Source: a virus. From it: a stretch of DNA of 26,315 bases. Positions 3,046-21,258 of this stretch are shown piece after piece (within the stretch, counting starts at the first letter, position 1; each line of letters starts with the position of its first letter). The stretch is from positions 1 to 26,315 of IMG/VR virus record IMGVR_UViG_3300030107_001708; one strand, written 5' to 3'. A program made the translations under genes and the position numbers. The notes under the pieces are model-generated. The model saw nothing but the letters and a program-made list of their open reading frames with translations, made no database searches and had not been told where the DNA came from.

Positions 3046-3048
3046 GCC

Positions 3049-6592: not shown

Positions 6593-9500
6593 ATGGCTCT
6601 CAGTCCAGAAGAATGGCTACGTAGAAGAAGAGGACCTATGGGTAGGCCACGGCTTCCTGAGCCTCAAGTTGAGCCAGTTCCATTACCCGGACCTATGGGC
6701 ACGAGGGAGACTCGTCGTGGGCTTCCGACATTACCAGAAGACGCTGGTATGCCACAACCAACTATGCGATTACCTACAGGGACCGTTAATATTCCGAGGT
6801 CATTCGCAGAATATAGAAGCAATGTAGGTCAGAACTTCGCGAAGAGGGGAAGTCAAGTAGCATCAGGACTAGGTCAAGTAGCATCTGGACTTCAGGGTAT
6901 GACAGGTATACCAGTTGCAGGTTACACTGACGCTGTTGTCCCGGAAGACGCGCTAGCCCTTGAAAACGAAAGGCTAGTTACTAGTACACTGCTAGACCTT
7001 CTTGACCCAAGTACAGGATTTGGGAGGACAGGTGCTGCATCAGAAGAGGCAGGAAGAGATTACAAAGGATTCTTAACTGCAGGTGGCGAAGAAGTCACAA
7101 AACATGGATGGTCAGCAGGTCCACCAGTAGCAAGACCGGGCGCACCAGCAGGACAGGTTCAGTTTGAAGAAGGATATCAATATCCAGTAGAGCGTTTTAA
7201 GGAAACACTGGATGAGTGGATGGAGGTTTACGAAAATACTCCCGGTAACTTCTTTCAAAAAAACAGCGCAGCATATGAGGACTATAAACGAAAGTCAGGA
7301 TTACCAGAAACATATTTCTTTGTGATGGAGCTTCTTGTTGAAGAAGGTTTGCTGGTTGGTTCTTTTGGTGCAGGTGCTGCACTAAGGGCAGGTGGTAAGG
7401 GTCTGCAAAAATGGTCCATAAAGAATGCAATCGGTAAAGATGCGATTGATGTGGATAAGATTAACAGGTTGCCTCCAGCCGCACAGAAGCTCCTTAATGA
7501 ATTAGCCAATGATACGGGTTCAGTACTGGAAGTCACAGGGCGAGGACTTGAAGGTCCACTGCGACTTGAAAATTACTTAGGTGAAAAACTAATTGGCGGT
7601 ACAGTTGCCGCTTTCAGGGGCGGCCAGAAAGCTGCAGAAGGACGGTTTGACACGCAAATGTCAAATGACGCCACTACGGTAGATGACTTTGATATTGGTA
7701 TTCCAACAACGGCAAATCGTGGAACAGAAGTCGAGCCCGGTTTTAACAGGTTTACTTATCAAGAAATTGCAGAGTTGCCGACCAGTAAGTATGGCGAAGC
7801 ACACGAACAAACAGCAGTGCGAACCTTTGAATCTAGTTACGATGATTTGGTTGCTCAACTGCAATCAAACGCATACCCAAGTGAGGTTAGGAATCTTTCA
7901 CCACAAGAACACCTAGAGAATCTCAAGTCTTTAAACGGGCTAGATGCCGATGACGCAACGGGTAGCACAATTGGATTCCCTGATGTGCTTAATGACCCAA
8001 TGGGTTATCTTGACACAGCTACATTGCATCTGTTGTATAAAGACCCAAGCCGAGGAGTGATGACTAGCTATGGAGCTACCTTGAACCAAATCAAGGACAG
8101 GCTTATAGACGATGGTAACTCATGGATGTTTGGCGTTGCTCGTGCAGACTTAGATGGATTCCGAGCTTATCTAGCCTCTCCACCCGGTGCAATTCAAGGC
8201 TTTAGCTCTTTCGTAGATAATTTAATCGACGATGCTGCATCTCTTGCGCCTGATAACTGGCGCACTGCATCTGATGAACTTGCTGAAGCAGCAGGGCTTA
8301 GTACAGAAGAAATAAATTATAGGACATGGTTGCAAGGGATGCCTGAGACTGAGCCATCCCTTGGCGGTTTATACACAGAGGAAATTGTCGAGGGGAGAAT
8401 ACCGGGCCTGCGTGATGAAGTAAAGGTTCCGCAAAAATGGCAATCTCAAGTCACAGCCAGTCTCCCTCGTAGCGGTCGTAGTGTTCCCGTTGGAAGCGCA
8501 GTGGATGAATATGATTACACAATTCCAACAAAAGAAGGAATGGAATCACCGCCACTCGGCGGAGTCGAGTATTATGGACAAAGAGGTGCGGATGAAATCG
8601 ATGACATCCGATTTGATACTAGCAGTGGTAGCTTGTATGCCAAACTGAACGTCGATAAGCTTAAGAAAAACATTAATATAAGTTGGTTTCCTAGAATGAA
8701 CACTGACCCCGGAATGTTAGCTGGGGAAGCGATAGAGGAACAGAAGGAAATATTTGAATTCATCTCTGACTTTCTTAAGGAGAACCCCGGATATTCTTTT
8801 GCTGCTACGGCTACGAATATAGGACAGTCTCAGAAAGCGTTAGTTCGATTATTGCAGGAGCCGTGGGTGCAGAATGACCCTTCTTATCCTGATTTAATGG
8901 AGGCAATAAGGGCTCAAGGGCAAACGCTGGATTCTTTGTCTAGGGACATAATGTCAACGGGTGCTTTTAGTGATTTCTACGCTAACGTAGAGAAATATCT
9001 AAATTATTATGGAACTGGCGACCCAGAGGTTTTTGAGTTTGTAAATGCATTGCAGCAAGTATTACATTACGACGGTACGGTAAAGCGAGCTAATATATAC
9101 ACAGGCTCATTTGGGCGAAAGGCATCAGGTGAGCAAGAGTTTGAAATATTGGAAGGACAGGGTGCGGTAGAAGGCCGTATCCCTACGCGTAAGGGTGAGC
9201 CAACAAATATCACCCTTCGTCCGGGCGTTGAACTTGAAGGTAGGCCTCAGGCGTATGAAGTTAGTGCCGAGGTTCCTGCGTTAGCCCTGCGGCGTTTTCA
9301 GGATGGAGCGAGAACAGCACTCCAGAGGGTGCGGAATAACCTTCCGGGTAACAAGGCGCAGAAGCAGAAGCTTTACGATGATACTTATACTGGGGTTAGG
9401 AGCTTTGTTGAGTATCAGTTACGGAATGAAGGATTCACCAATGCAACAGTAAAGATAGTAAAGAACTACGTTAGGAATGCAGAGTTAGGCGTTACGGTTT

Positions 9501-12500
9501 ACGAGCCAAGGCTTTCTATTGATGCAACAGTTCACCCTGACAGGGTAGATGCCTTTGAGCAGGCAGTGGCAAGGATAGTGGATACTGATTTGAATCACGA
9601 TTCCTACCTTATGTACCGCAAGCCTAACCCACAAGAGTTAGCCCTACTTAGAAGCAAAGCTCCCGGAACTACCATTACTGATTTAGCAGCAGGAGCAGGC
9701 GGACCCATTACGTATGGTCCGATAGCGGATACAGATGAATTCCTTGAGCCATCAGTAACCTTTAGGTTTGATGGAACACCCTTAAACGAAACAGAAAAAG
9801 CTTATATTGTTGATGCAGCTATTCGTAACGGTGTTAATGGTGTACGAGTAGCTGATGATGGATTGTCAGTAGAATTTTTGCATGTATCAGGAATGGATGG
9901 CTCGGCATCATTGGGCATAGGCGAAGATGATTACTCAGAGATATACGAATGGGCAATGCGTCTAAGGACCATGCTAGGAGATGAAAATGTTAACCTCGCA
10001 AGACTTTCAACAAATTATGAGACAGGTACTGTCGTCACAAGGTTTCGTGGAGAATCCGCCCCTAAGGGAAGAGGAACCCTCAGAGAGCAACGAGTTAAAG
10101 GTGCAGGCGTTGACGATACCGGCAAGGCAATTACGTTCAGTGAAAAAGGACTTGCCGCAGAATCAAACAGGCGCACCGCAGAATGGCTTAGATGGTCAGA
10201 CCAAGGCTCAAACTACCTCGATGACGGACGACCCCTTAAGCCAGTTGGAGGCGGAGCTACCGCCACAACTACCCCAACAGTTACAGGATTCGCCAGACTT
10301 CCTCTAATGGCTAGAGCCCTCGCAAGACCTTTGGAGGAAATTCATGACAATTACTTTGGGTTGAAATGGATGGACCGTAAATACCAGTCGATGCTTCAGA
10401 GTGAACTAGGCAGAAAACTTGACCTTTTTGATTACGACAAGGCTGGAGTAGTAGATTTGGCTAATCTTTTGACTCGTGCCCCACGAGCGGCGCAGGCTGG
10501 CATTGGTCGATACAAGGCTTTCATGTCGGATATAAAGGCGATACAAAAGACATCTTCTATTTCAGATGTAGAAAAATTTATTAAACTTCGTCGTATCCTT
10601 GAGGTTACCCAGTTAGACCGTATGCAGGGCAAAGATGTAGTGTACAACATTTCAGAGGCCGGTCAGCCGCCTGTGCTTGTACGAACAGCAGAAAATGCAG
10701 AAGAACAAATAGCATTACTGAAAACGAATATGGGTGATGTTGCTTTCAAAGAAGCAGAGGACATCGCTGATATGCTCAACGATTTGTACAGAGATGAGAG
10801 AAGAAGGCTTTTCGAGAATGGCTGGATAAACAAAGAAGCTTATGATTTATGGGAAGAAAAGCATCCTAACTATAGCCCGTTTGATTTTGTTGACGAGACA
10901 GCAAAGAAAGGCGGTATAGGTAAAGGTGACCTGTGGACACAGATACAGGATTCAGGGATAAGGGAGCTAGGTGGAGGAACAGTAAACGCTATCAAGCAGC
11001 CTATACGTGAAGTATTGCCGCATCAGATGGTAAAGAATGAACTCCGTATACGCGGCAACGAGCTAGTTGGTGCTGCTATGAAGCAGAGCAAATACTTGGA
11101 CCCAGATTCAATAGAACTCATTAAAGGAGTTGACCCAGTAACAGGTGAGGCTATAAGTAAAAATGTGGATGTTGATAAATTTTCAACACTGACATTGTGG
11201 GAAAACGGAGTAAAGAACACTTACCGAGTACCAAAAACAATGCAGGTAGAACTTACTTTCCTTAATGATATGGCCATTAAAGATATGGGCAGGATTTACA
11301 ATATACTTGCAGGTCTTGGGCGAAAGGCATCCACGTTTAGGCGTCAGTCAATAACTCGGTACAGCATGCCAATATCAGCAGGAATATTTGTTGGTGATAT
11401 AGCTCAGGCATTTATTAAGCGAAGAGTAAATCCATTTGAAACTATTTTAGGGCAGATGCTCAGAAGGGCTGAGTCCAGCGAGGGGCAATGGTACTCTTCT
11501 TTTATTGCGAACCCTGCGAAAATTGCGCGAATGGGATTGAACGTACCTATACAAATCGCAAATGTTGTTCCGGGTGTGAACTGGCAAACCATCGGTGGTG
11601 GAGGCGCAGCCTCTGACCGACTAGTAGAAAATATTATGCGTATGGGCGGTGGTAGGCAGGGCAGATGGTACGGCCTTGATGTAGAGATTGGAGATGTTGC
11701 TTCGGAGTTCACTGAAGCGCAGCGAAAACAGATGGAAGATTATGTCAAACGTGAGGGCGGAATTGTCATTACGAATGAAAAACAATCCAACAATCTCTAC
11801 ATGAGAGCAGCGAAAGCCGCGTGGGAATCTAAGGTTAGGAGACTTGCCACATCCCCCGGTAAAGGATATATGAAACTGGCAGGTGGTTTTTCAGACTGGT
11901 CAGAGAATGCATCACGAAAGGCTTTCATACGCAAACAATTAGACCAACAGTTTCCGGGTTGGGAGAAATCTATTGCAGCGAACAGAAGGAACGCAGAAGA
12001 ACTTATTAACCAGCAGTCCGTGCTTCAAATAGTTGAGGACGCATCGAAGCTTACTCTCGATTTTACTCGTGGCGGCAGGAGTATAAAGGTAGCCAATAGA
12101 TATATTCCATTTCTTAATGCCATGATGGAAAGCATAAAAGACCCTGTAAGAGCTATGTTTACTGACCCTAGAGGAAAAGCCGACGCATGGAGAGGATTAG
12201 GGCTAGTTGCATTAGGACAGGTAGCACTAACTATTCATAACATGGATATACCGGGATACTGGGATAGGACAGAGCAGTCTAGGCACAGTGGTGTGAGCAT
12301 ACAGTTACCACAGGATGAGGATGATGTTGATGCGAGCGGAAGACCTCGTCCAAAGTTTATGGCAATAATCCCTAACCTTTGGACATGGGGTGTGTTTACA
12401 GGGACAGTCACGGCATTGGTCGAGAACCTAGCCCTAGAAAACCCGAAAGCATTTAAAGAATTAAAAGCTGGTATGTTCGATAATATGTGGGACGTAGTAG

Positions 12501-14065
12501 AAGATATACCTTCGGCTGCATTTAATGCCCTTAAGACACGGGTATCTTCAGGTGAGCTTGTACCTACTCAGCAATGGAAGAGTACATTTACGCCTGCTCT
12601 TGTAGGAACAGGAATGCAGCTTTACCAAGGGGTAAACTGGTTTACTGGAGAGGAAATAGTTCCTCCTGCACTAGAAGGGTTACCTGAAGAAGAGCAGTAC
12701 ACTGCACGCACCTCACGGTTAATACATGGTACAGCGAATCTTTTTAATCTAAATCCGAGCCTTGCTGATTTTGCTATACGAGACCAAGGCGGTGCTGCCG
12801 TAGGAGATGTCCTTGGCATGACTGATACTTTCCTTCAGTCTATTCTCCCGGAGTACTCCGATGAAACCGAGAAGCTCCTTGAGCAATATGAGGCGTTGGA
12901 AAAATCAAAAAATCCAATGGGAGTAAGGGCTGCAAAAAGAAACTTTATAGCACAGCTTTCTAATGAGCAGCGAGAGCGTTTGCAATTTAGGCTTGATGAG
13001 CCTGACGGAGTGCGAGCGATTCCTATATTCGGAAAAGCGATACAGAAGTTTTACCCAAGAACTGGTGGCGGATTGTATGAGCGTGGATTACAGGTAGGTG
13101 AAGAGGAGTTTGGAATAGATGAAGAGCAGACTCGTAAAGTCTCTAAATTACTATCGACAGATTCCACACTTAAACACAACGATTACAGAAAATTAGAAGA
13201 TGAGTTCACGCAAGGAAAGCTTACCCCGAAGCAGCTTAGAAAAGGCAAGGATGCAATCGATGATATATATAGTAACAAGAGAGCTACCTATGAAGAAGAG
13301 AACCCACTGGCGGGACAGTTCCTGAAAGGTCTAGACGAGAACATTATGTTCGATGAATTGACAGAAACTGGCGGTGGATTGGCAGATGATTTAAGAACAC
13401 AAGCAGAGAAGTCAGTAAGTGAAATTTACGCTATCCCAGTAGAAATGGAATTTGGTCCTAACTATGACGCCGAGAAAGGGGAGGTAGTAGAAGATTCCTA
13501 TGCATATGCAAAATTCTTTAATGACCGTCAAGATAAGCTGGATGAAATAGAAAGAAAGTATGGGTCTGAATACCTTGAGACAGTAGAGCAAATTATGAGT
13601 GCTGGATTGCGTGGACCTATCGCGGAACTTGACAAAGACCGAAAGTCATTACGTGAATACTGGAATGCTGGGCAGGACGATTTCCTGACATGGGCTACTG
13701 AAGATTGGTCAATCGGTAAACAGAGGCCTGATGATGTACGAGACTTTATGGAATCTGATTCTGATAGGAGAGATTACCTTATGAACCAAGGTGGTACTAC
13801 AGAAGACCAAGCGTTCTATACTCGGCTTCGTGAGCAGCATTCCCTATCTAAAAATAGACGTAGTGGTGAAATAAACAGGCAAAGGCAAAGAGTGCTAAAA
13901 CAACCCAATCAGGTTGGAGAGGCGATTCAGACTCTGTTACGATACTGGGGTTATGATGATGAGATAGAAGTCGATGAACAGGGTGGCAGGATATCAGTAA
14001 CCGAGCCTCGCGTGACTGAGGCTGAAGTGCAAATGGCAAGAAATATATTGAGGAATAGGAGTTAG
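6593..14065 (+). CDS. Giant 2490-residue virion-module protein with LPD38-like region
   Basis: One uninterrupted frame takes 28% of the window. The N-terminus (1-60) is Arg/Pro-rich, and around 237-270 is a helical stretch with a hydrophobic Gly/Ala segment. Roughly 950-1170 looks like alternating alpha/beta domains (for example HPDRVDAFEQAVARIV). From about 1570 to 1960 the pattern resembles LPD38: RQSITRYSMPISAGIFVGD, later SDWSENASRKAFIRK, then LTLDFTRGGRSI and RYIPFLNAMMES. The C-terminal ~430 residues are charged and helical. LPD38-type regions occur in very large polyvalent proteins of phages and conjugative elements that are thought to enter the recipient cell. With no tape measure in the window and a position between portal and scaffold, an ejected internal virion protein is my preferred role. 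I see no clear lysozyme, peptidase or polymerase motif. It carries one TTGACA-N6-TGTCAA site at 7647. Confidence 0.82.
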   Translation: MALSPEEWLRRRRGPMGRPRLPEPQVEPVPLPGPMGTRETRRGLPTLPEDAGMPQPTMRLPTGTVNIPRSFAEYRSNVGQNFAKRGSQVASGLGQVASGLQGMTGIPVAGYTDAVVPEDALALENERLVTSTLLDLLDPSTGFGRTGAASEEAGRDYKGFLTAGGEEVTKHGWSAGPPVARPGAPAGQVQFEEGYQYPVERFKETLDEWMEVYENTPGNFFQKNSAAYEDYKRKSGLPETYFFVMELLVEEGLLVGSFGAGAALRAGGKGLQKWSIKNAIGKDAIDVDKINRLPPAAQKLLNELANDTGSVLEVTGRGLEGPLRLENYLGEKLIGGTVAAFRGGQKAAEGRFDTQMSNDATTVDDFDIGIPTTANRGTEVEPGFNRFTYQEIAELPTSKYGEAHEQTAVRTFESSYDDLVAQLQSNAYPSEVRNLSPQEHLENLKSLNGLDADDATGSTIGFPDVLNDPMGYLDTATLHLLYKDPSRGVMTSYGATLNQIKDRLIDDGNSWMFGVARADLDGFRAYLASPPGAIQGFSSFVDNLIDDAASLAPDNWRTASDELAEAAGLSTEEINYRTWLQGMPETEPSLGGLYTEEIVEGRIPGLRDEVKVPQKWQSQVTASLPRSGRSVPVGSAVDEYDYTIPTKEGMESPPLGGVEYYGQRGADEIDDIRFDTSSGSLYAKLNVDKLKKNINISWFPRMNTDPGMLAGEAIEEQKEIFEFISDFLKENPGYSFAATATNIGQSQKALVRLLQEPWVQNDPSYPDLMEAIRAQGQTLDSLSRDIMSTGAFSDFYANVEKYLNYYGTGDPEVFEFVNALQQVLHYDGTVKRANIYTGSFGRKASGEQEFEILEGQGAVEGRIPTRKGEPTNITLRPGVELEGRPQAYEVSAEVPALALRRFQDGARTALQRVRNNLPGNKAQKQKLYDDTYTGVRSFVEYQLRNEGFTNATVKIVKNYVRNAELGVTVYEPRLSIDATVHPDRVDAFEQAVARIVDTDLNHDSYLMYRKPNPQELALLRSKAPGTTITDLAAGAGGPITYGPIADTDEFLEPSVTFRFDGTPLNETEKAYIVDAAIRNGVNGVRVADDGLSVEFLHVSGMDGSASLGIGEDDYSEIYEWAMRLRTMLGDENVNLARLSTNYETGTVVTRFRGESAPKGRGTLREQRVKGAGVDDTGKAITFSEKGLAAESNRRTAEWLRWSDQGSNYLDDGRPLKPVGGGATATTTPTVTGFARLPLMARALARPLEEIHDNYFGLKWMDRKYQSMLQSELGRKLDLFDYDKAGVVDLANLLTRAPRAAQAGIGRYKAFMSDIKAIQKTSSISDVEKFIKLRRILEVTQLDRMQGKDVVYNISEAGQPPVLVRTAENAEEQIALLKTNMGDVAFKEAEDIADMLNDLYRDERRRLFENGWINKEAYDLWEEKHPNYSPFDFVDETAKKGGIGKGDLWTQIQDSGIRELGGGTVNAIKQPIREVLPHQMVKNELRIRGNELVGAAMKQSKYLDPDSIELIKGVDPVTGEAISKNVDVDKFSTLTLWENGVKNTYRVPKTMQVELTFLNDMAIKDMGRIYNILAGLGRKASTFRRQSITRYSMPISAGIFVGDIAQAFIKRRVNPFETILGQMLRRAESSEGQWYSSFIANPAKIARMGLNVPIQIANVVPGVNWQTIGGGGAASDRLVENIMRMGGGRQGRWYGLDVEIGDVASEFTEAQRKQMEDYVKREGGIVITNEKQSNNLYMRAAKAAWESKVRRLATSPGKGYMKLAGGFSDWSENASRKAFIRKQLDQQFPGWEKSIAANRRNAEELINQQSVLQIVEDASKLTLDFTRGGRSIKVANRYIPFLNAMMESIKDPVRAMFTDPRGKADAWRGLGLVALGQVALTIHNMDIPGYWDRTEQSRHSGVSIQLPQDEDDVDASGRPRPKFMAIIPNLWTWGVFTGTVTALVENLALENPKAFKELKAGMFDNMWDVVEDIPSAAFNALKTRVSSGELVPTQQWKSTFTPALVGTGMQLYQGVNWFTGEEIVPPALEGLPEEEQYTARTSRLIHGTANLFNLNPSLADFAIRDQGGAAVGDVLGMTDTFLQSILPEYSDETEKLLEQYEALEKSKNPMGVRAAKRNFIAQLSNEQRERLQFRLDEPDGVRAIPIFGKAIQKFYPRTGGGLYERGLQVGEEEFGIDEEQTRKVSKLLSTDSTLKHNDYRKLEDEFTQGKLTPKQLRKGKDAIDDIYSNKRATYEEENPLAGQFLKGLDENIMFDELTETGGGLADDLRTQAEKSVSEIYAIPVEMEFGPNYDAEKGEVVEDSYAYAKFFNDRQDKLDEIERKYGSEYLETVEQIMSAGLRGPIAELDKDRKSLREYWNAGQDDFLTWATEDWSIGKQRPDDVRDFMESDSDRRDYLMNQGGTTEDQAFYTRLREQHSLSKNRRSGEINRQRQRVLKQPNQVGEAIQTLLRYWGYDDEIEVDEQGGRISVTEPRVTEAEVQMARNILRNRS
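7646..7665. repeat. Palindromic site copy 1, 7-bp arms
   Basis: TTTGACA-CGCAAA-TGTCAAA, perfect inverted repeat with seven-base arms. It is in the giant gene in the frame that reads Phe-Asp-Thr-Gln-Met-Ser-Asn. It shares the 12 fixed arm bases and an identical spacer with copy 3. It could be a protein-binding operator or an RNA hairpin. Confidence 0.75.
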
Positions 14066-14068
14066 AGT

Positions 14069-14842
14069 ATGGTAATGCAAGAGGAGAATCTGCAGCCGGA
14101 ACCGATTGAACAAGACACGGTAGTGGACTTGACACCGGAACCAGAACCAGAGGTAGCGGAAGGAGAGCAGCTTTCACTTGATGATGTTGCTCCTGTTGGT
14201 GAAACAGTAGTTGACACGCAATTGTCAACCCCTGAAGCTCCACCTGTTGAAGAGGCAAAGGCAGAAGTAAGTGCCGAGCAGGCAAAGGAAGAACGACAGA
14301 GACTGGCAGACCTAGAGGAACTAGGCCGCAGGAGAAGGGAAGAAGAAGAAACGCAACGCAAGCAGCAGTTACTGCAACGCGCAAGAACTAAAGAACAAAA
14401 CCTTTTAAATGACGGCTTTCTTCCTGAGCAGGCTAGAAGACAAGTTAATGAGATGGTTTCGTATGAGAATAAGATTCACGACGTTCAGCAGAAGTCTATG
14501 GAACTGTTACAATTTGCTGAAGGTCGTAACAATGCAGCACTTCACTTCGGTGTAAAGCATGGACTTATTCCTAAAGAAGTGGTAGATGATATAAACGTGT
14601 TGTTACGTTCTCAAAGTCCAGACGATATGGAGTTTGAGGCGAAGCGAATGTCTGAGTTACGTCAGACAAGGGCGGAGATAAGTCGATTGAAGCAAGGGCA
14701 GGTGAAGCCACAGACATTTGACAACAGTCAAGGTTCGGCAGAAGCTGTTAATAGTGATGATAGACTTATCGACGCATATCTTAACGGTGACCGTTCAGAG
14801 GCTGCGGTGCAGGCAGCAAAACGGCTTACTTTTGGTAGCTAA
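14069..14842 (+). CDS. Putative capsid scaffolding protein (257 aa)
   Basis: The position directly before the major capsid gene, the size and the composition fit a scaffold, which templates procapsid assembly and leaves or is digested before DNA fills the head. Residues 1-65 are acidic and Pro/Glu-rich (PEPEPEVAEG). Residues ~70-150 are a charged Arg/Glu/Gln coiled coil (RRREEEETQRKQQLLQRA), and a basic-flanked helix with KRMSELRQTRAEISRLKQ lies near 205. The C-terminal ATEA-like stretch ends in AAVQAAKRLTFGS. I see no fused protease. The start is ATG at 14069 after TAGGAG at 14056-14061; a second in-frame ATG at 14075 is possible. Copy 2 of the palindromic site lies inside it. A minor head protein is the alternative. 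Confidence 0.68.
   Translation: MVMQEENLQPEPIEQDTVVDLTPEPEPEVAEGEQLSLDDVAPVGETVVDTQLSTPEAPPVEEAKAEVSAEQAKEERQRLADLEELGRRRREEEETQRKQQLLQRARTKEQNLLNDGFLPEQARRQVNEMVSYENKIHDVQQKSMELLQFAEGRNNAALHFGVKHGLIPKEVVDDINVLLRSQSPDDMEFEAKRMSELRQTRAEISRLKQGQVKPQTFDNSQGSAEAVNSDDRLIDAYLNGDRSEAAVQAAKRLTFGS
14210..14229. repeat. Palindromic site copy 2, 7-bp arms
   Basis: GTTGACA-CGCAAT-TGTCAAC, perfect inverted repeat with seven-base arms, inside the scaffold gene. The outermost arm base differs from copy 1 (G/C instead of T/A) but changes on both sides, keeping the palindrome. It reads Val-Asp-Thr-Gln-Leu-Ser-Thr. Confidence 0.75.
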
Positions 14843-14848
14843 AGGAGG
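14841..14848 (+). promoter_or_regulatory. Consensus SD of the major capsid gene (AAAGGAGG)
   Basis: AAAGGAGG ends five bases before the capsid ATG at 14854 and starts within the upstream TAA region. It is the strongest ribosome-binding site in the window, matching the need for hundreds of capsid copies. Confidence 0.8.
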
Positions 14849-14853
14849 CTCCT

Positions 14854-15714
14854 ATGGCACAGACAGCCACGACTGGTAATTTAGAGAATGCACAGAAGAT
14901 TATTATAGCAACGTCTCGTTACACCGAGGAACACAATGCTCCTGCGATGAACTTGATTGAGCAATTCAACCTTCCGAGCGGAAGCAAACAAGTGACCGTT
15001 CCTAAGGTTGGACAGATGTCAATGAGTGACCTTGCCGATGGCATCGACATCGTTGACGAAGAGGACATTGGAATGACAACGGTAGACCTCACTGCATCTG
15101 AGGTTGGAGCCAAGATAATCATTACCGATAAACTCTCCCGACAGAGTGCCGAGAACGTATTCAGCATTATCGGACGACAGCTTGGTGACGGCATGGCACG
15201 AAAGAAAGATGAAGACGTAGTAGCTCTTTACTCTGGATTCGGTACTGACATTGGGGCTGCCGGACGCAGTATGACGCTAGCAAATGTTGCTGCCAGTATT
15301 GCATATGCCAAAGGTAACAAGTTTGGTTCTCAGGTGTACATCAACCACCACCCATTCGCAGTATTTGATGTAGCAAACACCGCAGTAACAGCATCTACTA
15401 CCTACCCTGTACCACAGGGATGGACAGCAGACTTGCTTGGTAACTTCTTCAGTGGCCTTCGCCCAATCAACGGTGTTCCAATCTTTGAAGATGGGAACAT
15501 AACCATTGATGCAAGCGATGACGCTGTTGGCGTTATTGCTGACAAGACTGCCTTGGCAGTACTCAAGAGCGTAGACACCCGAACTGAGCGACAACGTGAC
15601 GCTTCTCTCCGTGCAACGGAAGTAGTTATCACGGCTGACTACGGTGTATTCGAGCTTGATGACAGCAAAGGTGCAGCATTTACATTAGACGCTGGTACAC
15701 CTGCCACCTCATAG
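14854..15714 (+). CDS. Major capsid protein (HK97-fold type)
   Basis: Builds the icosahedral shell. The 286-residue length, position after the scaffold-like gene, strong SD and sequence pattern agree. There is an N-terminal arm with ATSRYTEEHNAPAMNLIEQF, then an E-loop-like strand region with VTVPKVGQM and an Ile/Asp-rich segment. The helix SAENVFSIIGRQLGDGMARKKDEDVVALYSGF is typical of the spine/A-domain region. Later come VYINHHPFAVFDV, GLRPINGVPIFEDGNI and a C-terminal ERQRDASLRATEVVITADYGVFELDD, where the newly made protein contacts its neighbours. No protease cleavage site or crosslinking residue can be assigned by eye. Fold assignment is by pattern memory; the capsid role is well supported by context. 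Confidence 0.88.
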   Translation: MAQTATTGNLENAQKIIIATSRYTEEHNAPAMNLIEQFNLPSGSKQVTVPKVGQMSMSDLADGIDIVDEEDIGMTTVDLTASEVGAKIIITDKLSRQSAENVFSIIGRQLGDGMARKKDEDVVALYSGFGTDIGAAGRSMTLANVAASIAYAKGNKFGSQVYINHHPFAVFDVANTAVTASTTYPVPQGWTADLLGNFFSGLRPINGVPIFEDGNITIDASDDAVGVIADKTALAVLKSVDTRTERQRDASLRATEVVITADYGVFELDDSKGAAFTLDAGTPATS

Positions 15715-15717
15715 GAG
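15712..15717 (+). promoter_or_regulatory. Stop codon fused to SD (TAGGAG)
   Basis: The TAG stop of the capsid gene overlaps AGGAG serving the ATG at 15724. Confidence 0.6.
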
Positions 15718-15723
15718 AGATAA

Positions 15724-16059
15724 ATGGCTATAGGAACTAAGGAGCGAACCGAATTGAGAGACAAGTTAGTATCTCAAGGGTACGACTGGAATTACATAGA
15801 TGAATGGCAACCAAAGGTAACACTGTACAGGCATTGCCCGGTATATTCTCCATCAGGAGCGGAGGCTAGTCCGAGAGGAACAGCTATTAAAAATCTACCG
15901 GGCCATCCTGACTATGTTCATAAAAAAGGTAGAATAGGGCTGTTCACATGGCCGCCAAGTGATACGTGTACGTGTCGCTGGTGTGTTGAAGAAAGTAAAG
16001 CATCTTCCAAAAAAGATAGCGGAAGCGTTGTCGAAAAGGTAGATGAGATACCTAGCTAG
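15724..16059 (+). CDS. Small Cys/His-rich protein next to the capsid gene (111 aa)
   Basis: Unrecognised small protein. Cys82-x-Cys84-x2-Cys87 (CTCRWC), with Cys38, His61 and His66 available, could hold a zinc ion. The central LPGHPDYVHKKGRIGLF block has the look of a conserved core, and the last ~25 residues are a charged, Ser/Lys-rich disordered tail. It sits between the capsid and decoration genes, so a capsid-associated or assembly role is likely, though not shown. The SD overlaps the capsid stop. The stop lies in a perfect 10-base palindrome, CCTAGCTAGG, at 16051-16060, and is followed by the longest gap in the window. Confidence 0.78.
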   Translation: MAIGTKERTELRDKLVSQGYDWNYIDEWQPKVTLYRHCPVYSPSGAEASPRGTAIKNLPGHPDYVHKKGRIGLFTWPPSDTCTCRWCVEESKASSKKDSGSVVEKVDEIPS

Positions 16060-16136
16060 GTGTAAAGATTGGCCGTGCCTAGCGATAAATTAATAACGGC
16101 TGGTCGCAGGGCTTGACCCTGTAGAAAGGAGACATC
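16060..16136 (+). promoter_or_regulatory. 77-base structured intergenic leader before the decoration-like gene
   Basis: Two adjacent hairpins can be drawn. ATTGGCCGT (16068-16076) pairs with ACGGCTGGT (16096-16104), nine pairs including three G-U, around a 19-base A/T-rich loop. CAGGG (16107-16111) pairs with CCCTG (16117-16121) around CTTGA. AAAGGAG follows at 16125-16131, before the ATG at 16137. There is no T-run, so it is not a classical intrinsic terminator. It may be an RNA processing site, mRNA stabiliser or translational control leader. No convincing -35/-10 pair is visible. The structure is from manual pairing only. Confidence 0.45.
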
Positions 16137-16877
16137 ATGTCTTTCGGAGCGATACAAAGTGGAAAGTATGGGTTTGAAAAACAAACTCATAACAAACAGA
16201 GAGCTACACTCGGAGCGACTATGGCTCTTCCTGATGGAAGAGTATTTCGTTATGTAGCAAATGGTGGCACAGCCATTGGTGAGGGACTTGTTGTTGCATC
16301 AGAAGCACCAGCAGGAAACCACGATGACGACTTGGTTGTAGCTGTATCCGGTGCTGTTGGTGGCAAGACCATTAGCATCACCTTAGGTGGTACTGCTGCT
16401 GCTAAGAATCTTTACGCAGAGGGTTTCATTCGACCAAATCTTCCTTCTACAACTCCTCATGAGATGTACAAGATAAAGAGCCACCCGGCTATTGGAAGCA
16501 GTAGCACAGGCGTATTCACCATTGATGAGCCAGATGGGTTCCAGACTGCTATTACAGCAGGCACGGACAGTGTTGGTCTTATCAAGAGCCCATATGCAGA
16601 CATTGTTGTTGCACCAGCAGCAGTCGCAGGACGATTTGTTGGCGTAACTTGTGCTGACCTTGAAGCCGACTACTACGGTTGGGTTCAGGTAGCAGGACTA
16701 GCCAATGCAAAGATGGATGGAACTCCAGCCATTGGTACATTGGTAGGTGCTAGCTCCAACCACGCAGGTCAATTACTTGCTATTGGTGCTGACACTACTC
16801 CTGCACTAGCAAGAGTCCACGGTATAGCAGCAGTAGACAATGAGTTTAGCTCAGTATTCTTGATGAACCTCTTTTAA
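16137..16877 (+). CDS. Head decoration-like / capsid-associated protein (246 aa)
   Basis: Beta-rich protein two genes after the capsid gene. The pattern MALPDGRVFRYVANGGTAIGEGLVVASEA, then TAAAKNLYAEGFI, a MYKIKSHPAIGSS stretch, DSVGLIKSPYADIVV and ADYYGWVQVAGLA is one I associate with conserved phage head proteins that decorate or stabilise the shell. It is small-residue-rich (Ala, Gly, Thr), with no membrane segment or signal peptide. It has its own good SD and a structured leader, which suggests high or separately tuned expression. The decoration role is an inference from position and pattern; a second structural head protein remains possible. Confidence 0.7.
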   Translation: MSFGAIQSGKYGFEKQTHNKQRATLGATMALPDGRVFRYVANGGTAIGEGLVVASEAPAGNHDDDLVVAVSGAVGGKTISITLGGTAAAKNLYAEGFIRPNLPSTTPHEMYKIKSHPAIGSSSTGVFTIDEPDGFQTAITAGTDSVGLIKSPYADIVVAPAAVAGRFVGVTCADLEADYYGWVQVAGLANAKMDGTPAIGTLVGASSNHAGQLLAIGADTTPALARVHGIAAVDNEFSSVFLMNLF

Positions 16878-16901
16878 TAAGAGTCGTCACAAGGTAGGAA
16901 T

Positions 16902-17276
16902 ATGACAACAGATTTATGGATACCGTCAGGGGCTACCTATCAAGGGGTGGCCCCTGCAGGAAAAAACGCGGAAACAGGCGAAGCGGTAGTAGTTCATCAA
17001 CTCAAGGTAGTCTTTACAGATATCTGGGGTGTGGAACATAAGCAGATAATCAGGGTACTTGCTGATGCAGACACCAGTCAGGCTCACATAGACGAGATGT
17101 TTGGTAATGCAACAGAGAGGTGGCTTGAGGAAGCAAAGATAAAGTACAACCGCAGACCTGCTACTGCTGAGGAAAAGAAGGAAGCTGGTAAAGCACTGAA
17201 CGAAATCCTGAAGCATAGAATATTGCGTAAGGAAAGTACTACAGGGAAAATATACTTCAAAGGAACGAGGAGATAG
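16902..17276 (+). CDS. Conserved-looking small protein of unknown role (124 aa)
   Basis: No family recognised. The first half is beta-like (HQLKVVFTDIWGVEHKQIIRVLA) and the second half helical and charged (TERWLEEAKIKYNRRPATAEEKKEAGKALNEILKHRI), ending in a basic FKGTRR tail. The upstream gap of 24 bases holds AAGGTAGGA as a weak SD. Its 3' end contains AGGAG (17268-17272), which serves the next mini-gene. It sits between the decoration-like gene and the mini-gene cluster, so a head-completion role is possible but unproven. Confidence 0.72.
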   Translation: MTTDLWIPSGATYQGVAPAGKNAETGEAVVVHQLKVVFTDIWGVEHKQIIRVLADADTSQAHIDEMFGNATERWLEEAKIKYNRRPATAEEKKEAGKALNEILKHRILRKESTTGKIYFKGTRR

Positions 17277-17277
17277 G

Positions 17278-17448
17278 ATGGCAGACATAGACGTTGCGGT
17301 TACTAAGGAAGACTTGGATAGCGTTATAAAAGAAAATCCATTAGTTTCATTACAGTTACAGGTCAAGGCATTGACACGCAAATGTCAAGAACTCGCTGAT
17401 AAAATAGTTGAGTTAGAGGGAGAGAAGAATGCCAGCAGTAAAAAGTAA
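17278..17448 (+). CDS. Mini-gene 1: 56-residue coiled-coil protein
   Basis: ATG at 17278 follows AGGAG at 17268-17272 by five bases and begins one base after the previous stop, giving 56 residues. The product begins MADIDVAVTKEDLDSVIK and continues with a heptad-like helix (SLQLQVKALTRKCQELADKIVELEGEK), so a small coiled coil is likely. Palindromic site copy 3 lies inside and reads Leu-Thr-Arg-Lys-Cys-Gln, a different frame from copies 1 and 2. Its last 20 bases overlap the next mini-gene. Confidence 0.7.
   Translation: MADIDVAVTKEDLDSVIKENPLVSLQLQVKALTRKCQELADKIVELEGEKNASSKK
17371..17388. repeat. Palindromic site copy 3
   Basis: TTGACA-CGCAAA-TGTCAA, six-base arms with the same spacer as copy 1, inside mini-gene 1. 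It is read in another codon frame than copies 1 and 2, so shared protein sequence does not explain the identity. Confidence 0.75.
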
Positions 17449-17566
17449 ATCAGGTAGAACGAGACACTTTCCTTACACGAAATCAGGGGAAGCTGCTGCC
17501 AAGAAAATGGCTAAGAAGTCTGGTACTAAAGTCATGAATAAGAAGAAAAGAAATGGCAAGTACTAG
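17429..17566 (+). CDS. Mini-gene 2: 45-residue basic protein
   Basis: Starts at ATG 17429 with AGGGAG at 17417-17422, overlapping mini-gene 1 by 20 bases in another frame. The 45 residues contain 12 Lys and 3 Arg against one Glu, with HFPYTKSGEAAAKKMAKKSG in the middle. I recall small phage proteins with a FPYT-x-x-G start and AKK repeats, but no function for them. A nucleic-acid-binding or capsid-internal role fits the charge. The protein is short and was found by reading the overlap, so the evidence is the SD, composition and overlap pattern. Confidence 0.68.
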   Translation: MPAVKSKSGRTRHFPYTKSGEAAAKKMAKKSGTKVMNKKKRNGKY

Positions 17567-17705
17567 AAGAAAACCAGCCCAAAAGAAGAACACTCGGTCA
17601 GATATGCGTCGAGCGATGAAGCACCGATTAGCAGTAAGCTATGTAAAAGGCCAGCGTGCTGGTGGTAAACGTGCTGTTAAAGCTCGCATGGGCGATGATG
17701 ACTAG
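17553..17705 (+). CDS. Mini-gene 3: 50-residue basic protein
   Basis: ATG at 17553 overlaps mini-gene 2 by 14 bases, and the frame ends with TAG at 17703-17705. The product holds about 16 Arg/Lys (MASTRRKPAQKKNTRSDMRR at the start, GGKRAVKARMG near the end) and finishes with three Asp. The SD is poor (AAGAAGAAAAG), so translational coupling to mini-gene 2 is likely. Role unknown. Charge suggests binding to DNA, RNA or an acidic partner. Confidence 0.62.
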   Translation: MASTRRKPAQKKNTRSDMRRAMKHRLAVSYVKGQRAGGKRAVKARMGDDD

Positions 17706-17720
17706 TCAAGGAGTACAATT

Positions 17721-19007
17721 ATGCCTGTCATCCAAGGGAGGACACGAGAACAATTAAGGCAGGACGTAGGCCATGCACTAGGTGCTATCTACGTATCTTC
17801 AGCTACCTCTAATGGTACGGATGCAGGCAAGCTGATTGACAATACGCTTGCTATAGGAGGAGATGATACCTTCAATGGCAAGTGGATTCGTTTCACATCA
17901 GGAGATGATGATGGTGCTATTCGCAGGGTTACTGACTACACTGCATCCTCATACACGATGACACTTCTTCCTGCACTTAGTGAAGCCAGTACGAGTGGTG
18001 ATACCTACGAGATGTGGGATGAAGAGTATCCTCCTGCACGCATCGACAGTTTTATCAACCAAGCAATCATGGATGCGACAGGCCATGCCTATGACCCCAT
18101 AGAGAACATCTCTCTGCATGGTGATGGGTATCAGACGAGATTCGATATACCTTCAAACATCGACATGATTAGCAAGATTGAGTACCGCAAGGATGTTTCA
18201 ATGAAGAGACTCCATACCTGTGGTACTACGTTTGATGAGGTTTCAACACCTACAGGATTTACTCAAGCAGTTGATACTAAAGATACAAAGCAAGGGGCAC
18301 AGTCATTAAAGATTTCTCTTGCTGCTGGGGCTAGTGCAGGTGCTTTTATCGCTGACTCAATCACTGCTGCTAACTTATCAGAATATGACACCATAGAAAT
18401 GTGGATAAAAGTAACTGGAATTGGCAGTGCATTGGTAGCAGGGAATATTAAATTGCACCTTGATGATGGCACAGTTGCAGCAGATGGCAGTGATTTAGAA
18501 AGCTTAGACCTTCCTGCGATTTCACCAGATACATGGACGTTTGCAAGGATGGCTTTAAATAATCCAGAATCAGATACTGCGATTGCCTCTGTTGGCCTTG
18601 AGCATGATGCAGACCTTGGTGCAGGAGTAACAATATTTATTGATGACATCGTTGCAGTAGCCACTGACACTGCTGAATGGGAGATACTCGACAGGAGAAA
18701 CTGGAAGATAGACAAGGAGGCTCGTGACCTCGTGTTACTCAGGGAAGGACAGAAGAAACTAGGTTATTCCCTGATAAAGATTGTAGGTGGTGACAAGCCT
18801 GCCCTTATGACCAGTGATTCTGATGTCACAGAGGTGGGAGAATCCTACGTTATCGCAACTGCTACGGCACTGGCACTCATATCCTCATCGGGAGGACCAG
18901 CAACTGACCCTGATTCAAAGAGGCAACTCAGTGCATACTGGGCAGCACAGGCAGAGCGTGAGCGCAATGCCTTCCCAATGCTTACTAATGTACGGACGGT
19001 CAGCTAA
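17721..19007 (+). CDS. Head-tail adaptor-like protein with inserted beta-sandwich (428 aa)
   Basis: The flanks look like a phage neck/adaptor protein: an N-terminal MPVIQGRTREQLRQDVGHALG and EYPPARIDSFINQAI, and a C-terminal EWEILDRRNWKIDKEAR followed by VGESYVIATATALAL. Between residues ~168 and 316 sits a module resembling a galactose-binding/carbohydrate-binding jelly roll: TKQGAQSLKISLAAG, LSEYDTIEMWIKV, LDLPAISPDTWTFARMAL and a final Asp-Asp-Ile strand. Residues ~25-95 are another beta-rich unit (IRFTSGDDDGAIRRVTDY). AAGGAG at 17708-17713 sets the start. The TAA overlaps the next ATG as TAATG, coupling it to the tail gene. The adaptor role is inferred from order and pattern. Confidence 0.66.
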   Translation: MPVIQGRTREQLRQDVGHALGAIYVSSATSNGTDAGKLIDNTLAIGGDDTFNGKWIRFTSGDDDGAIRRVTDYTASSYTMTLLPALSEASTSGDTYEMWDEEYPPARIDSFINQAIMDATGHAYDPIENISLHGDGYQTRFDIPSNIDMISKIEYRKDVSMKRLHTCGTTFDEVSTPTGFTQAVDTKDTKQGAQSLKISLAAGASAGAFIADSITAANLSEYDTIEMWIKVTGIGSALVAGNIKLHLDDGTVAADGSDLESLDLPAISPDTWTFARMALNNPESDTAIASVGLEHDADLGAGVTIFIDDIVAVATDTAEWEILDRRNWKIDKEARDLVLLREGQKKLGYSLIKIVGGDKPALMTSDSDVTEVGESYVIATATALALISSSGGPATDPDSKRQLSAYWAAQAERERNAFPMLTNVRTVS

Positions 19008-20932
19008 TGGCTGCGAAAGTAGTAGATACCAACGAAATCTCTCTGAATGGTGTCTACTATCCGATAACAAAACCAGTTCAGAGCATGCTAGCTTCCATCT
19101 ATCCGGGCAAGGTAGTCATTGGTGATACAACCAAGGACTCACAGCTACGGACATCTATCATTGCATGGTCAGACTGGCGTGGTGGTATAGGTGTTAACCG
19201 CATGGAGGGGGCAGGGGAGGTCAACCGTGCATGGTGGTCAACAGCACAGCTTCGCTATAAGAATCACCTCGTACTACCGGGACTAGCAACCGAGACGGCT
19301 GATGCTGACCATCAGTTTGGTGATGGAAGCATTGGTGCTATCAATGAATTTAATAATGAAATCTATGCTATGTGGAATGGTGGGGGTGGAACTAACCCTA
19401 AGTTATTCAAATACAACAACACCAGCGATAGCTGGGGAGAAGAAACAAGCAATGCAACTGACGAGGCTACCGACAGCGTTGTGTTTACCGATGCAGCAGG
19501 GACTTCATACCTTGTCTTTGCCTGTTACGATGCAGCAAACAGTGGATATATATACTCATCCAATGGAACTAGTTGGACACGAGATTCACAGGCAACACAG
19601 TTCCTGACAGTGTGGGATGAAAGACTCTGGGGAATATCCAATGCAGGTCAGTTATGGCACGCATCAACGATAGGCGCAGAGGTACTGGATGCAATGCTCC
19701 CACTACCAGATGGCTATGTCACTGCTCTATTCGTAGCACGTAATGCTGCTGGTGTACCTATCATCTACGCATCTACCCTTGAGGGCTTATATGCCCATGA
19801 CGCAGACAATGCCATGTGGGTAGAAACCCAGATGAAGTTCCCTCGTCACCCTGAGAATGGTAAAGGAACTATTCGATGGAGAGACAGCGTTTATATTCCA
19901 GCAGGAATGGGGCTATACAAGTACATCAATGGTGGTAACTCTGCTGTTGTTACAGTCGTTGGGCCTGACAGGGATGATGGTCTACCGTCAGACAAACGGG
20001 GCTCGATACGAGTAACGGCAGGAAGCCACAATGAATTACTGGTAGGTGTTGATGCACAGGCAACGCCCGGAGCAGTGTCAAGTACTTCTATTCCCTATCA
20101 ATGGCAGTCGCATCAGGGTTCAATGGTTATCCCTGCCTCCACTGGATACAGTGCCATCTTTGGCTATAACGAACTGGGATGGGAAACAAAGTGGCTTAGT
20201 ACGGCAGCAGGAAGAGGGCTTGGGGCTATCCATGTAAGCAGTGCCTATAACAAGTACAGGCTATGGTGGGGGCATTTCTTGGATGTGTACTTCATGGATA
20301 TTCCATCAGACATTATTAACCCATCAGAGATAGGTGACTTTGATTACGCTTTGTCTGCCACGCATGAGACTCCTTGGTTCAATGCAGGGCAGAGTGAGGT
20401 TGATAAGCTCGCACTCAAGGTTAAGACTGAGGTAGAAGACGCATCAAGTACTGAGACAGTCAAGGTTGAGTATGCCGTTAACTACGATGAATCGACCTAC
20501 TATACTGCAGCAGCTAGCATTACCAGCAGTGGGATTGACACCTATACCTTTAACTCTGGTGCTGGTACTGCGTTCAGGTCCATTAAGTTTAGGCTTACCT
20601 TGGCTCGAAGCAATGCTACAACAACAGGATTCGAAAGCCGGAATACACCAGATGTAGTATCCCTGACGTTAGAATACAGAAAGAAACTACCTGCAAAATG
20701 GGGTCACTCAGTACAGGTAGATTTAAATAATACGCATAAGGGGAAAAACCCAAAGGATTTGAGGGCTGCGTTAATAGCAGCCATAGAAAGTACAGAGCTT
20801 GTAGAGTTTACCTACAGGGATGACTCTGGGGGAACAAGAAACTATTATGTTGATGTAGTTTCTGCAACAGGATTAGAGTTCACTGGATTAGATGAACGAG
20901 GGTTCTCCACGATATCAGTAATGGAACCATAA
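19007..20932 (+). CDS. Beta-rich tail protein, possibly beta-propeller (641 aa)
   Basis: Predominantly beta protein with repeated strand blocks that look like propeller blades: NEIYAMWNGGG, YLVFACYDAANSGYIYSS, DERLWGISNAGQLWHAS, PIIYASTLEGLYAHD, DSVYIPAGMGLYKYI and NELLVGVDAQA. The C-terminal ~180 residues (from about ETPWFNAGQSEVDKLAL) look like a beta-sandwich, then VEFTYRDDSGGTRNYYVDVVS near the end. It directly follows the adaptor-like gene with a TAATG overlap, so a tail hub or nozzle-type component of a short tail is plausible. I see no catalytic motif. A tail protein with host-binding propeller is the alternative. Confidence 0.68.
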   Translation: MAAKVVDTNEISLNGVYYPITKPVQSMLASIYPGKVVIGDTTKDSQLRTSIIAWSDWRGGIGVNRMEGAGEVNRAWWSTAQLRYKNHLVLPGLATETADADHQFGDGSIGAINEFNNEIYAMWNGGGGTNPKLFKYNNTSDSWGEETSNATDEATDSVVFTDAAGTSYLVFACYDAANSGYIYSSNGTSWTRDSQATQFLTVWDERLWGISNAGQLWHASTIGAEVLDAMLPLPDGYVTALFVARNAAGVPIIYASTLEGLYAHDADNAMWVETQMKFPRHPENGKGTIRWRDSVYIPAGMGLYKYINGGNSAVVTVVGPDRDDGLPSDKRGSIRVTAGSHNELLVGVDAQATPGAVSSTSIPYQWQSHQGSMVIPASTGYSAIFGYNELGWETKWLSTAAGRGLGAIHVSSAYNKYRLWWGHFLDVYFMDIPSDIINPSEIGDFDYALSATHETPWFNAGQSEVDKLALKVKTEVEDASSTETVKVEYAVNYDESTYYTAAASITSSGIDTYTFNSGAGTAFRSIKFRLTLARSNATTTGFESRNTPDVVSLTLEYRKKLPAKWGHSVQVDLNNTHKGKNPKDLRAALIAAIESTELVEFTYRDDSGGTRNYYVDVVSATGLEFTGLDERGFSTISVMEP

Positions 20933-20933
20933 T

Positions 20934-20951
20934 TTGACATTTGTGTGTCAA
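20934..20951. repeat. Palindromic site copy 4, intergenic
   Basis: TTGACA-TTTGTG-TGTCAA lies immediately after the stop of the 641-residue gene and before TAGGAG (20953-20958). On the opposite strand the spacer reads CACAAA, one base from CGCAAA, so this copy is inverted relative to the others. It is the only copy outside a coding frame. No -10 box follows at normal spacing. Confidence 0.75.
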
Positions 20952-20964
20952 CTAGGAGCAAGGA

Positions 20965-21258
20965 ATGCGAGTAGATGTAGGAGTAACAACAATAAGTTCG
21001 GCTGGCACAAGGGTGCAATTAAACAATGTAACCAACAGGGTAAAGTTTGTCAGGGTTAAGGCGTTAGCTGGTAACTCTGGACTTGCCTACATAGGTATTA
21101 GTGACGTGGCTGCTACTGTTGGCTACGAATTAAGTGCAGGGAATGAGCATGAACTGAACTTTGGTGAGTTTGGTGGGAGTGTTCCTGCAAATATATTCTA
21201 TGCAGATGCGGCTACGAATGGCGATAAGATATGTTGGACGATGGTGCTTGAGGGATGA
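20965..21258 (+). CDS. Small beta-rich structural protein (97 aa)
   Basis: Unnamed small protein that appears to be one beta-sandwich domain: MRVDVGVTTISSAGTRVQL, VKFVRVKALAGNSGLAYIGISD, HELNFGEFGG and a final ICWTMVLEG. Such short sandwich proteins are common between tail and fibre genes, but its role is not established here. AGGAG at 20954-20958 lies seven bases before the ATG. The stop is TGA overlapping the next start as ATGA. Confidence 0.75.
   Translation: MRVDVGVTTISSAGTRVQLNNVTNRVKFVRVKALAGNSGLAYIGISDVAATVGYELSAGNEHELNFGEFGGSVPANIFYADAATNGDKICWTMVLEG

What the first reader, a model, noticed from the sequence alone, without database searches (positions are those of the whole stretch)
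7646..20951. Four copies of a perfect bipartite palindrome TTGACA-N6-TGTCAA with a near-constant spacer
Exact copies lie at 7647-7664, 14211-14228, 17371-17388 and 20934-20951. Twelve bases are fixed, so about 0.002 copies are expected by chance in 26 kb of random sequence; four are present, and the spacers are CGCAAA, CGCAAT, CGCAAA and (on the minus strand) CACAAA. In copies 1 and 2 the seventh arm base pair differs but co-varies (T/A against G/C). Copies 1 and 2 are read as Asp-Thr-Gln-(Met/Leu)-Ser, copy 3 in another frame, and copy 4 is intergenic, so protein conservation cannot explain it. The layout resembles scattered phage operators or stoperators, or a dimeric helix-turn-helix regulator site with CRP-like spacing. 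Other options are a methyltransferase or restriction site, a nucleoid or packaging-factor site, or an RNA hairpin with a GCAA-like loop (less likely because copy 4 is inverted). Since TTGACA is also the -35 hexamer, binding could silence stray promoters on either strand.
Basis: partly seen in the sequence, partly recalled or inferred. Interest (0 to 1): 0.78.

Follow-up and report, generated by a model that had tools for sequence, protein, structure and literature searches.

The report
Dispersed phage palindrome shared with SprT-phages
A fragment of an uncultured virus carries four perfect copies of an 18-base two-sided DNA tag, and unrelated phages and plasmids carry the same tag scattered through their genomes and in front of a gene for a SprT-like DNA-repair-type protease, so the tag is probably a binding site of a regulatory system built around that protease.

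Summary
In detail: TTGACA-N6-TGTCAA occurs exactly four times (7647, 14211, 17371, 20934), with no one- or two-mismatch copies, and it is the only repeated 6-base-arm spaced palindrome in the window. Protein constraint does not explain it. In the closest relative (78-89% DNA identity) copy 4 is absent as a clean 23-bp gap and copy 3 is broken by three changes that leave the protein unchanged. The window's phage family lacks the motif (background level in 1.5 Mb).

Unrelated phages have it in quantity: a marine group (4-12 copies per contig), G020 (12), G074 (15), and, as TTGAC-N8-GTCAA, cultured Actinoplanes phage phiAsp2 (16). Spacers there are variable and arms are under purifying selection. 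The only protein family shared widely by these phages is a SprT-like zinc metalloprotease. When such phages were fetched by that protein alone, TTGAC-N8-GTCAA was the most frequent of all 5-base spaced palindromes tested and often sits at the sprT-like promoter, also in some plasmids.

Best reading: dispersed dimeric operators of a SprT-linked regulator. The window contains no sprT-like gene; its early region is missing, so for this phage the link rests on motif identity. I found no published description.

The parts
7647..7664 (+). Copy 1, TTGACACGCAAATGTCAA, inside the 2490-aa ORF 6593-14065 (reads F-D-T-Q-M-S-N)
   Evidence: exact match; no alignable relative of this stretch
14211..14228 (+). 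Copy 2, TTGACACGCAATTGTCAA, in the variable Pro/Glu-rich N-terminal part of the gene before the capsid gene (reads V-D-T-Q-L-S)
   Evidence: exact match; residues not conserved in relatives
17371..17388 (+). Copy 3, TTGACACGCAAATGTCAA, inside the 56-aa gene 17278-17445 (reads A-L-T-R-K-C-Q-E)
   Evidence: exact match; all 12 arm bases kept in L041; three synonymous changes break it in L094
20934..20951 (-). Copy 4, TTGACACACAAATGTCAA on the minus strand, intergenic, 13 nt before the ATG of the gene at 20965 and next to its ribosome-binding site
   Evidence: exact match; absent from L094 and the other relatives aligned
20930..20952 (.). 23-bp segment TAATTTGACATTTGTGTGTCAAC that contains copy 4 and is missing, as one clean gap, in the closest relative
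   Evidence: pairwise alignment with L094, flanks 85-100% identical; 17 more distant relatives also lack the site

Best explanation
The four copies are dispersed binding sites (operators) for a sequence-specific, dimeric DNA-binding factor of the phage: half-site TTGACA, 6-bp spacer, 18 bp in all. The same operator is used by several unrelated phages and some plasmids, where it goes with a SprT-like zinc metalloprotease gene and usually lies at that gene's own promoter or start. Shown: identity of the motif, its enrichment, its tie to SprT-like genes, selection on the arms. Inferred: that the factor is the SprT-like protein itself or is controlled by it; that the window's phage encodes it in the missing early region; that binding acts as an autoregulatory operator at the sprT-like promoter and as a stoperator-like block or start-proximal silencer at the scattered sites.
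For: Exact enrichment in the window. Independent dense arrays: G020 12, G026 11, G023 8 and G021 10 copies; G074 15; spacers there differ. At orthologous positions in the marine group, chosen from one partner only, arms are 96-98% identical against 74-80% for flanks and 65% for spacers in pairs below 85% identity. SprT-like is the only protein with a strong match between all three of G020, G074 and the marine group and the only family in more than 3 of the 14 SprT-carrying groups compared, found in 12. In 55 loci (468 kb) fetched by SprT protein sequence, TTGAC-N8-GTCAA occurs 78 times against a mean of 0.37 for permuted arms, the top of all 1024 x 13 five-base spaced palindromes; phiAsp2 has 16 copies. 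In L248 the only copy on a 154-kb contig, and in L317 the only copy in the 12.9 kb held, lie at the sprT-like start or promoter. Plasmid sprT-like genes of Natronoglycomyces, Brachybacterium and pA387 have it at -57 to -65 with 0-1 mismatch. Copy 4 is a 23-bp gain beside a ribosome-binding site, the same placement as in the marine group.
Against: No sprT-like gene lies in the 26 kb, and in the window's family only L161 has one, with an ordinary promoter and no palindrome. The closest relative lacks the sites. Three of four copies are inside late genes, far from starts. The spacer is nearly constant here but free elsewhere. Binding by a SprT-like protein is not shown: the predicted structure is a SprT domain plus a C-terminal zinc ribbon with no classical HTH. 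Many sprT-like genes have no match or another palindrome upstream, and 22 of the 54 loci in that test share one upstream sequence family.
Confidence: 0.55

Rival explanations
1. Dispersed operators of an unrelated phage repressor (HTH type, immunity repressor or stoperator-like) in the missing early region; the match to the SprT-linked motif is coincidence.
For: The window lacks sprT-like and so does most of its family. Phages with dispersed operators are known (PMC9283540, PMC4351075). The near-constant spacer differs from the SprT-linked arrays.
Against: A 12-base palindrome with exactly the same spacing recurs in several unrelated phages tied to one protein family. The window was not chosen with knowledge of that motif.
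Confidence: 0.22
2. Sites for a host-encoded regulator that phages of many hosts have acquired; sprT-like genes are simply one of its targets.
For: Elements of quite different hosts share the operator.
Against: 14 cellular genomes known to carry at least one copy hold 1-2, except one Clostridia genome with 5 that also has a sprT-like gene near a site. The operator follows the sprT-like gene across Actinoplanes, Brachybacterium, Natronoglycomyces and Clostridia elements.
Confidence: 0.13
3. A tiny mobile palindrome (about 21-23 bp) copying itself through this phage genome.
For: Copy 4 is a clean 23-bp gain with a possible TA duplication; the 18-mer is nearly identical in all copies.
Against: Copy 3 is not an insertion: its codons align with relatives without a gap. 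Flanks of the copies share nothing beyond 18 bp. In other phages the spacers are unrelated, so those sites are not copies of one unit.
Confidence: 0.05
4. Chance plus codon bias: three coding matches and one intergenic match with no function.
For: Sites are lost in the closest relative; the codon-preserving shuffle gives a coding copy in 8% of trials.
Against: Never two coding copies in 300 shuffles against three observed; no other palindrome repeats; the intergenic copy is a gain of exactly the palindrome.
Confidence: 0.05

Closest known systems
Cluster O mycobacteriophage repeats (TGTTCGG-N3-CCGAACA; Corndog; PMC4351075)
   Same: Perfect, invariant inverted repeat with variable centre, scattered between and inside genes, absent from host genomes, occasionally lost by a single synonymous change; dimeric binding suspected, function unknown
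   Different: Different sequence and spacing; about 34 copies per genome rather than 4; conserved among cluster members; no SprT-like link is mentioned in that paper
Stoperators of Cluster A mycobacteriophages (L5-like repressor sites; PMC9283540)
   Same: Scattered repressor sites thought to stop transcription; a TGTCAA core (recalled from memory, not checked in a text here)
   Different: Asymmetric 13-mers bound by a monomer and oriented with transcription; here symmetric, with no consistent orientation
Start-associated sequences of Cluster K mycobacteriophages (PMC3203893)
   Same: Short repeats just before start codons, as for copy 4 and most marine-group sites; Cluster K phages also encode a SprT relative
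   Different: Different sequence and not a 6-bp-spaced palindrome; three of the four window copies are not start-associated
SprT-like / phage DNA-dependent metalloproteases (PF10263, PHROG 6361, Pas43 of phiAsp2)
   Same: The protein family whose genes carry this operator
   Different: Not described as a transcription regulator or linked to a palindrome in any text found; not present in the window
CapH/CapP and ImmR/ImmA repressor-protease pairs
   Same: Metalloprotease tied to an operator in mobile elements; a CapP structure is a weak fold hit to the SprT-like model (not significant)
   Different: Those pairs have a separate HTH repressor next to the protease; no shared repressor was found here

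Membership tests
SprT-linked dispersed operator (defined here) | TTGAC-N8-GTCAA / TTGACA-N6-TGTCAA in several scattered copies | tested here: met
   4 exact copies in the window
SprT-linked dispersed operator (defined here) | sprT-like gene in the same element with the palindrome at its promoter or start | not testable with these tools
   the window is a 26-kb fragment beginning inside the terminase gene; none in it; only L161 in the family has one, without the palindrome
SprT-linked dispersed operator (defined here) | variable spacer between conserved arms | tested here: inconclusive
   spacers CGCAAA, CGCAAT, CGCAAA, CACAAA are near-constant in the window, four sites only; the L041 orthologue of copy 3 has CGCACC with intact arms
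Cluster A stoperators | asymmetric site oriented with transcription | tested here: not met
   site is a perfect inverted repeat, and copy 4 has its spacer in the opposite orientation
Cluster O type palindromic repeats | TGTTCGG-N3-CCGAACA, over 30 copies, conserved in position among close relatives | tested here: not met
   different sequence, 4 copies, absent from the closest relative
Cluster K start-associated sequences | repeat immediately upstream of start codons | tested here: not met
   only copy 4 is start-associated; the others are intragenic
CRP/FNR-family site | a CRP/FNR-type regulator that binds it | not tested
   no such gene was recognised in the window; only the spacing resembles such sites
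RNA hairpin / terminator | stem extended or kept by compensatory pairs; strand-specific | tested here: not met
   outer pairs near chance in 148 sites from four phage groups; copies occur in both orientations
Promoter -35 element | a -10 hexamer 16-18 bp downstream | tested here: not met
   best -10 match 1-3 of 6 on either strand of all four window copies

The most novel reading that the evidence does not exclude
SprT-like zinc metalloproteases of phages and plasmids are sequence-specific, autoregulating DNA-binding proteins whose palindromic operator is scattered over the element that encodes them: a class of phage regulator that joins protease and operator control, of which this window is one user.
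Probability: 0.35. Interest if true: 0.82.

Novelty: new variant of a known kind. Interest (0 to 1): 0.62.

Why it matters
Scattered palindromes of unknown function are known from several phage clusters, with no binding protein assigned in the papers read. Here one such palindrome recurs in unrelated phages and plasmids and is statistically tied to a single protein family known as DNA-protein-crosslink proteases. That gives a directly testable candidate factor, in a cultured phage (phiAsp2) as well as in plasmids of cultured bacteria, and would give SprT-like proteins a regulatory role.

Tried and rejected
Relatives of the middle of the 2490-aa protein and of its N-terminal part in known phages: none. 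Exact 18-mer scans in viral and cellular collections: about chance number of hits and single copies each; the useful signal came only after relaxing the spacer. Known isolates related to G020/G026 by polymerase, terminase or SprT: no motif, one chance-like copy in phiAsp2 until the pattern was relaxed to TTGAC-N8-GTCAA. First conservation test was circular, since both partners had been selected for intact sites; replaced. First control for the upstream test was inflated by motif-dense loci, and the redone control still contained scattered arrays; the permuted-arm count is the fair one. Literature: no paper with the motif written out and none tying SprT to an operator. The Corndog genome was not in the collection, so whether Cluster O phages have a sprT-like gene was not checked. 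PDB fold search gave no significant hit.
Full report
THE OBSERVATION. Among all spaced palindromes with 6-base arms and spacers 0-20, TTGACA-N6-TGTCAA is the only one that occurs more than once in the window. A codon shuffle that keeps every protein gave no coding copy in 277 of 300 trials, one in 23, and never two; three are present, plus the intergenic one. The finding is real. The conserved block is 18 bp; the flanks share nothing.

SURROUNDINGS. The window is a 26,315-base virus record, a structural-gene segment: terminase large subunit, a portal-position protein, a 2490-aa ORF with an LPD38 domain, the gene before the capsid gene, major capsid protein, and likely tail genes. It starts inside the terminase gene, so the early region is not present. 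The nearest named phages are Pelagibacter phages such as HTVC112P, with about 32% capsid identity. The host is unknown.

CLOSE RELATIVES. 168 loci of the window's family (1.5 Mb) carry the motif once, in L041, at the position of copy 3. The L041 protein is 53% identical there, yet all 12 arm bases are kept and two of the six spacer bases differ. The closest relative with both regions, L094 (78-89% DNA identity), has no copy. At copy 3 it has TTGACtCGtAAATGcCAA with the same amino acids. At copy 4 the window has 23 extra bases (20930-20952) inside otherwise 85-100% identical DNA, and 17 more distant aligned relatives lack the site as well. So copy 4 was gained as a unit, copy 3 is not an insertion, and neither is held by protein constraint. 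Copies 1 and 2 lie in stretches too divergent to judge.

THE SAME PALINDROME ELSEWHERE. Scans with relaxed spacers found unrelated phage contigs with many copies: G020, 43 kb, 12; G026, 47 kb, 11; G021, 12 kb, 10; G023, 27 kb, 8; G074, 60 kb, 15; G078, 10; G079, 12. They share no proteins with the window. One set is a marine group spanning G+C 0.42-0.60. In it many early genes have the palindrome shortly before a GAGGAGGA ribosome-binding site, and some sites are inside genes. Following sites of one phage to the orthologous place in another, the arms are 96-98% identical, flanks 74-80% and spacers 65% in pairs below 85% identity: selection acts on the arms. Pairing outside the arms is near chance; the sixth base is mostly A and the seventh often C or G. 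This is the profile of a dimeric protein site, not of a hairpin.

THE LINKED PROTEIN. Between G020, G074 and the marine group the only protein with a strong match in all three is SprT-like (30-40% identity), and each has the palindrome just before its likely true start. L248 (only copy on a 154-kb contig) and L317 (only copy in the 12.9 kb held) are two further unrelated contigs; the copy sits at -24 and -66 of the sprT-like match, in L317 overlapping a TTGACA-N17-TAGGCT promoter. The test was then turned round: phages were fetched by SprT protein sequence only. In 55 such loci not already in hand (468 kb), TTGAC-N8-GTCAA occurs 78 times against a mean of 0.37 for permuted arms, and it is the most frequent of all 1024 x 13 five-base spaced palindromes; in the window's family it is at background, 3 in 1.5 Mb. 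Cultured Actinoplanes phage phiAsp2 has 16 copies in 58.6 kb, one before pas43. Of 14 SprT-carrying groups compared, 12 were joined through SprT-like and no other family joined more than three. In plasmids the match before sprT-like is exact in Natronoglycomyces and Brachybacterium and one mismatch off in pA387; Nocardiopsis, pNO33, Gryllotalpicola and Iamia have other palindromes there, and some have none. A Clostridia genome with 5 copies has a sprT-like gene 1.1 kb from a copy that lies before a ribosome-binding site and has exactly the window's CGCAAA spacer. The predicted structure of the phiAsp2 protein is a confident SprT domain with a C-terminal zinc ribbon.

MECHANISM. Most likely, a phage-encoded factor binds the palindrome as a dimer. 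At sprT-like promoters the site overlaps or adjoins the -35 region, so autoregulation is likely. At scattered sites, where no -10 is present in the window, binding would act as a block to transcription or initiation, in the manner of stoperators. Which protein binds is not shown. SprT-like is the only shared candidate, but a host factor, or a repressor destroyed by the protease, is not excluded.

LIMITS. For the window itself the connection is the identity of a 12-base palindrome and its spacing. No sprT-like gene is in the 26 kb, and in its family only L161 has one, about 3 kb before the portal gene, behind an ordinary promoter. The near-constant spacer remains unexplained. Many SprT-found loci belong to one phiAsp2-like set (22 of 54 in the upstream test), so independent lineages are fewer than loci.

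COMPARISON. The nearest published parallel is the 17-bp palindrome of Cluster O mycobacteriophages, scattered, invariant in its arms, of unknown function (PMC4351075). Stoperators (PMC9283540) are asymmetric; start-associated sequences (PMC3203893) are start-bound. No text found describes this motif or ties SprT-like proteins to an operator.

Noticed in passing
window 17278-17445: Unlisted 56-aa coiled-coil-like gene (MADIDVAVTKEDL...) conserved across the phage family; copy 3 lies in it.
   Followed up: yes
window 6593-14065: One 2490-aa ORF with an LPD38 domain, poorly conserved even in the closest relative (about 20% identity) although flanking genes are 84-89% identical in DNA.
   Followed up: partly
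L248 3150-3330 (154-kb contig): Perfect 36-bp palindrome GTCGCAGTATTGACACGTACGTGTCAATACTGCGAC immediately before a sprT-like gene.
   Followed up: partly
L347 (G045) 727-4003: Five copies of TTGACACTTATGTGTCAA with identical spacers within 3.3 kb, G+C 0.35; a different arrangement from the scattered arrays.
   Followed up: no
L435, L436, L428, L430 (plasmids): sprT-like genes preceded by other palindromes: AGTTCCCATGTACATGGGAACT, CTGTACACGCGAAATTTCGCGTGTACAG, TCATTTGATCAAATGA, TTGTCACGTACGTGACAA.
   Followed up: no
L275, L329, L241 (marine group): A further conserved GG(G/C)ACGA lies directly before many of the start-associated palindromes.
   Followed up: no
G026 39112-39387 (L211): Ferredoxin-like gene (CTGDGLCVEICPSLF) in a marine phage.
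   Followed up: no
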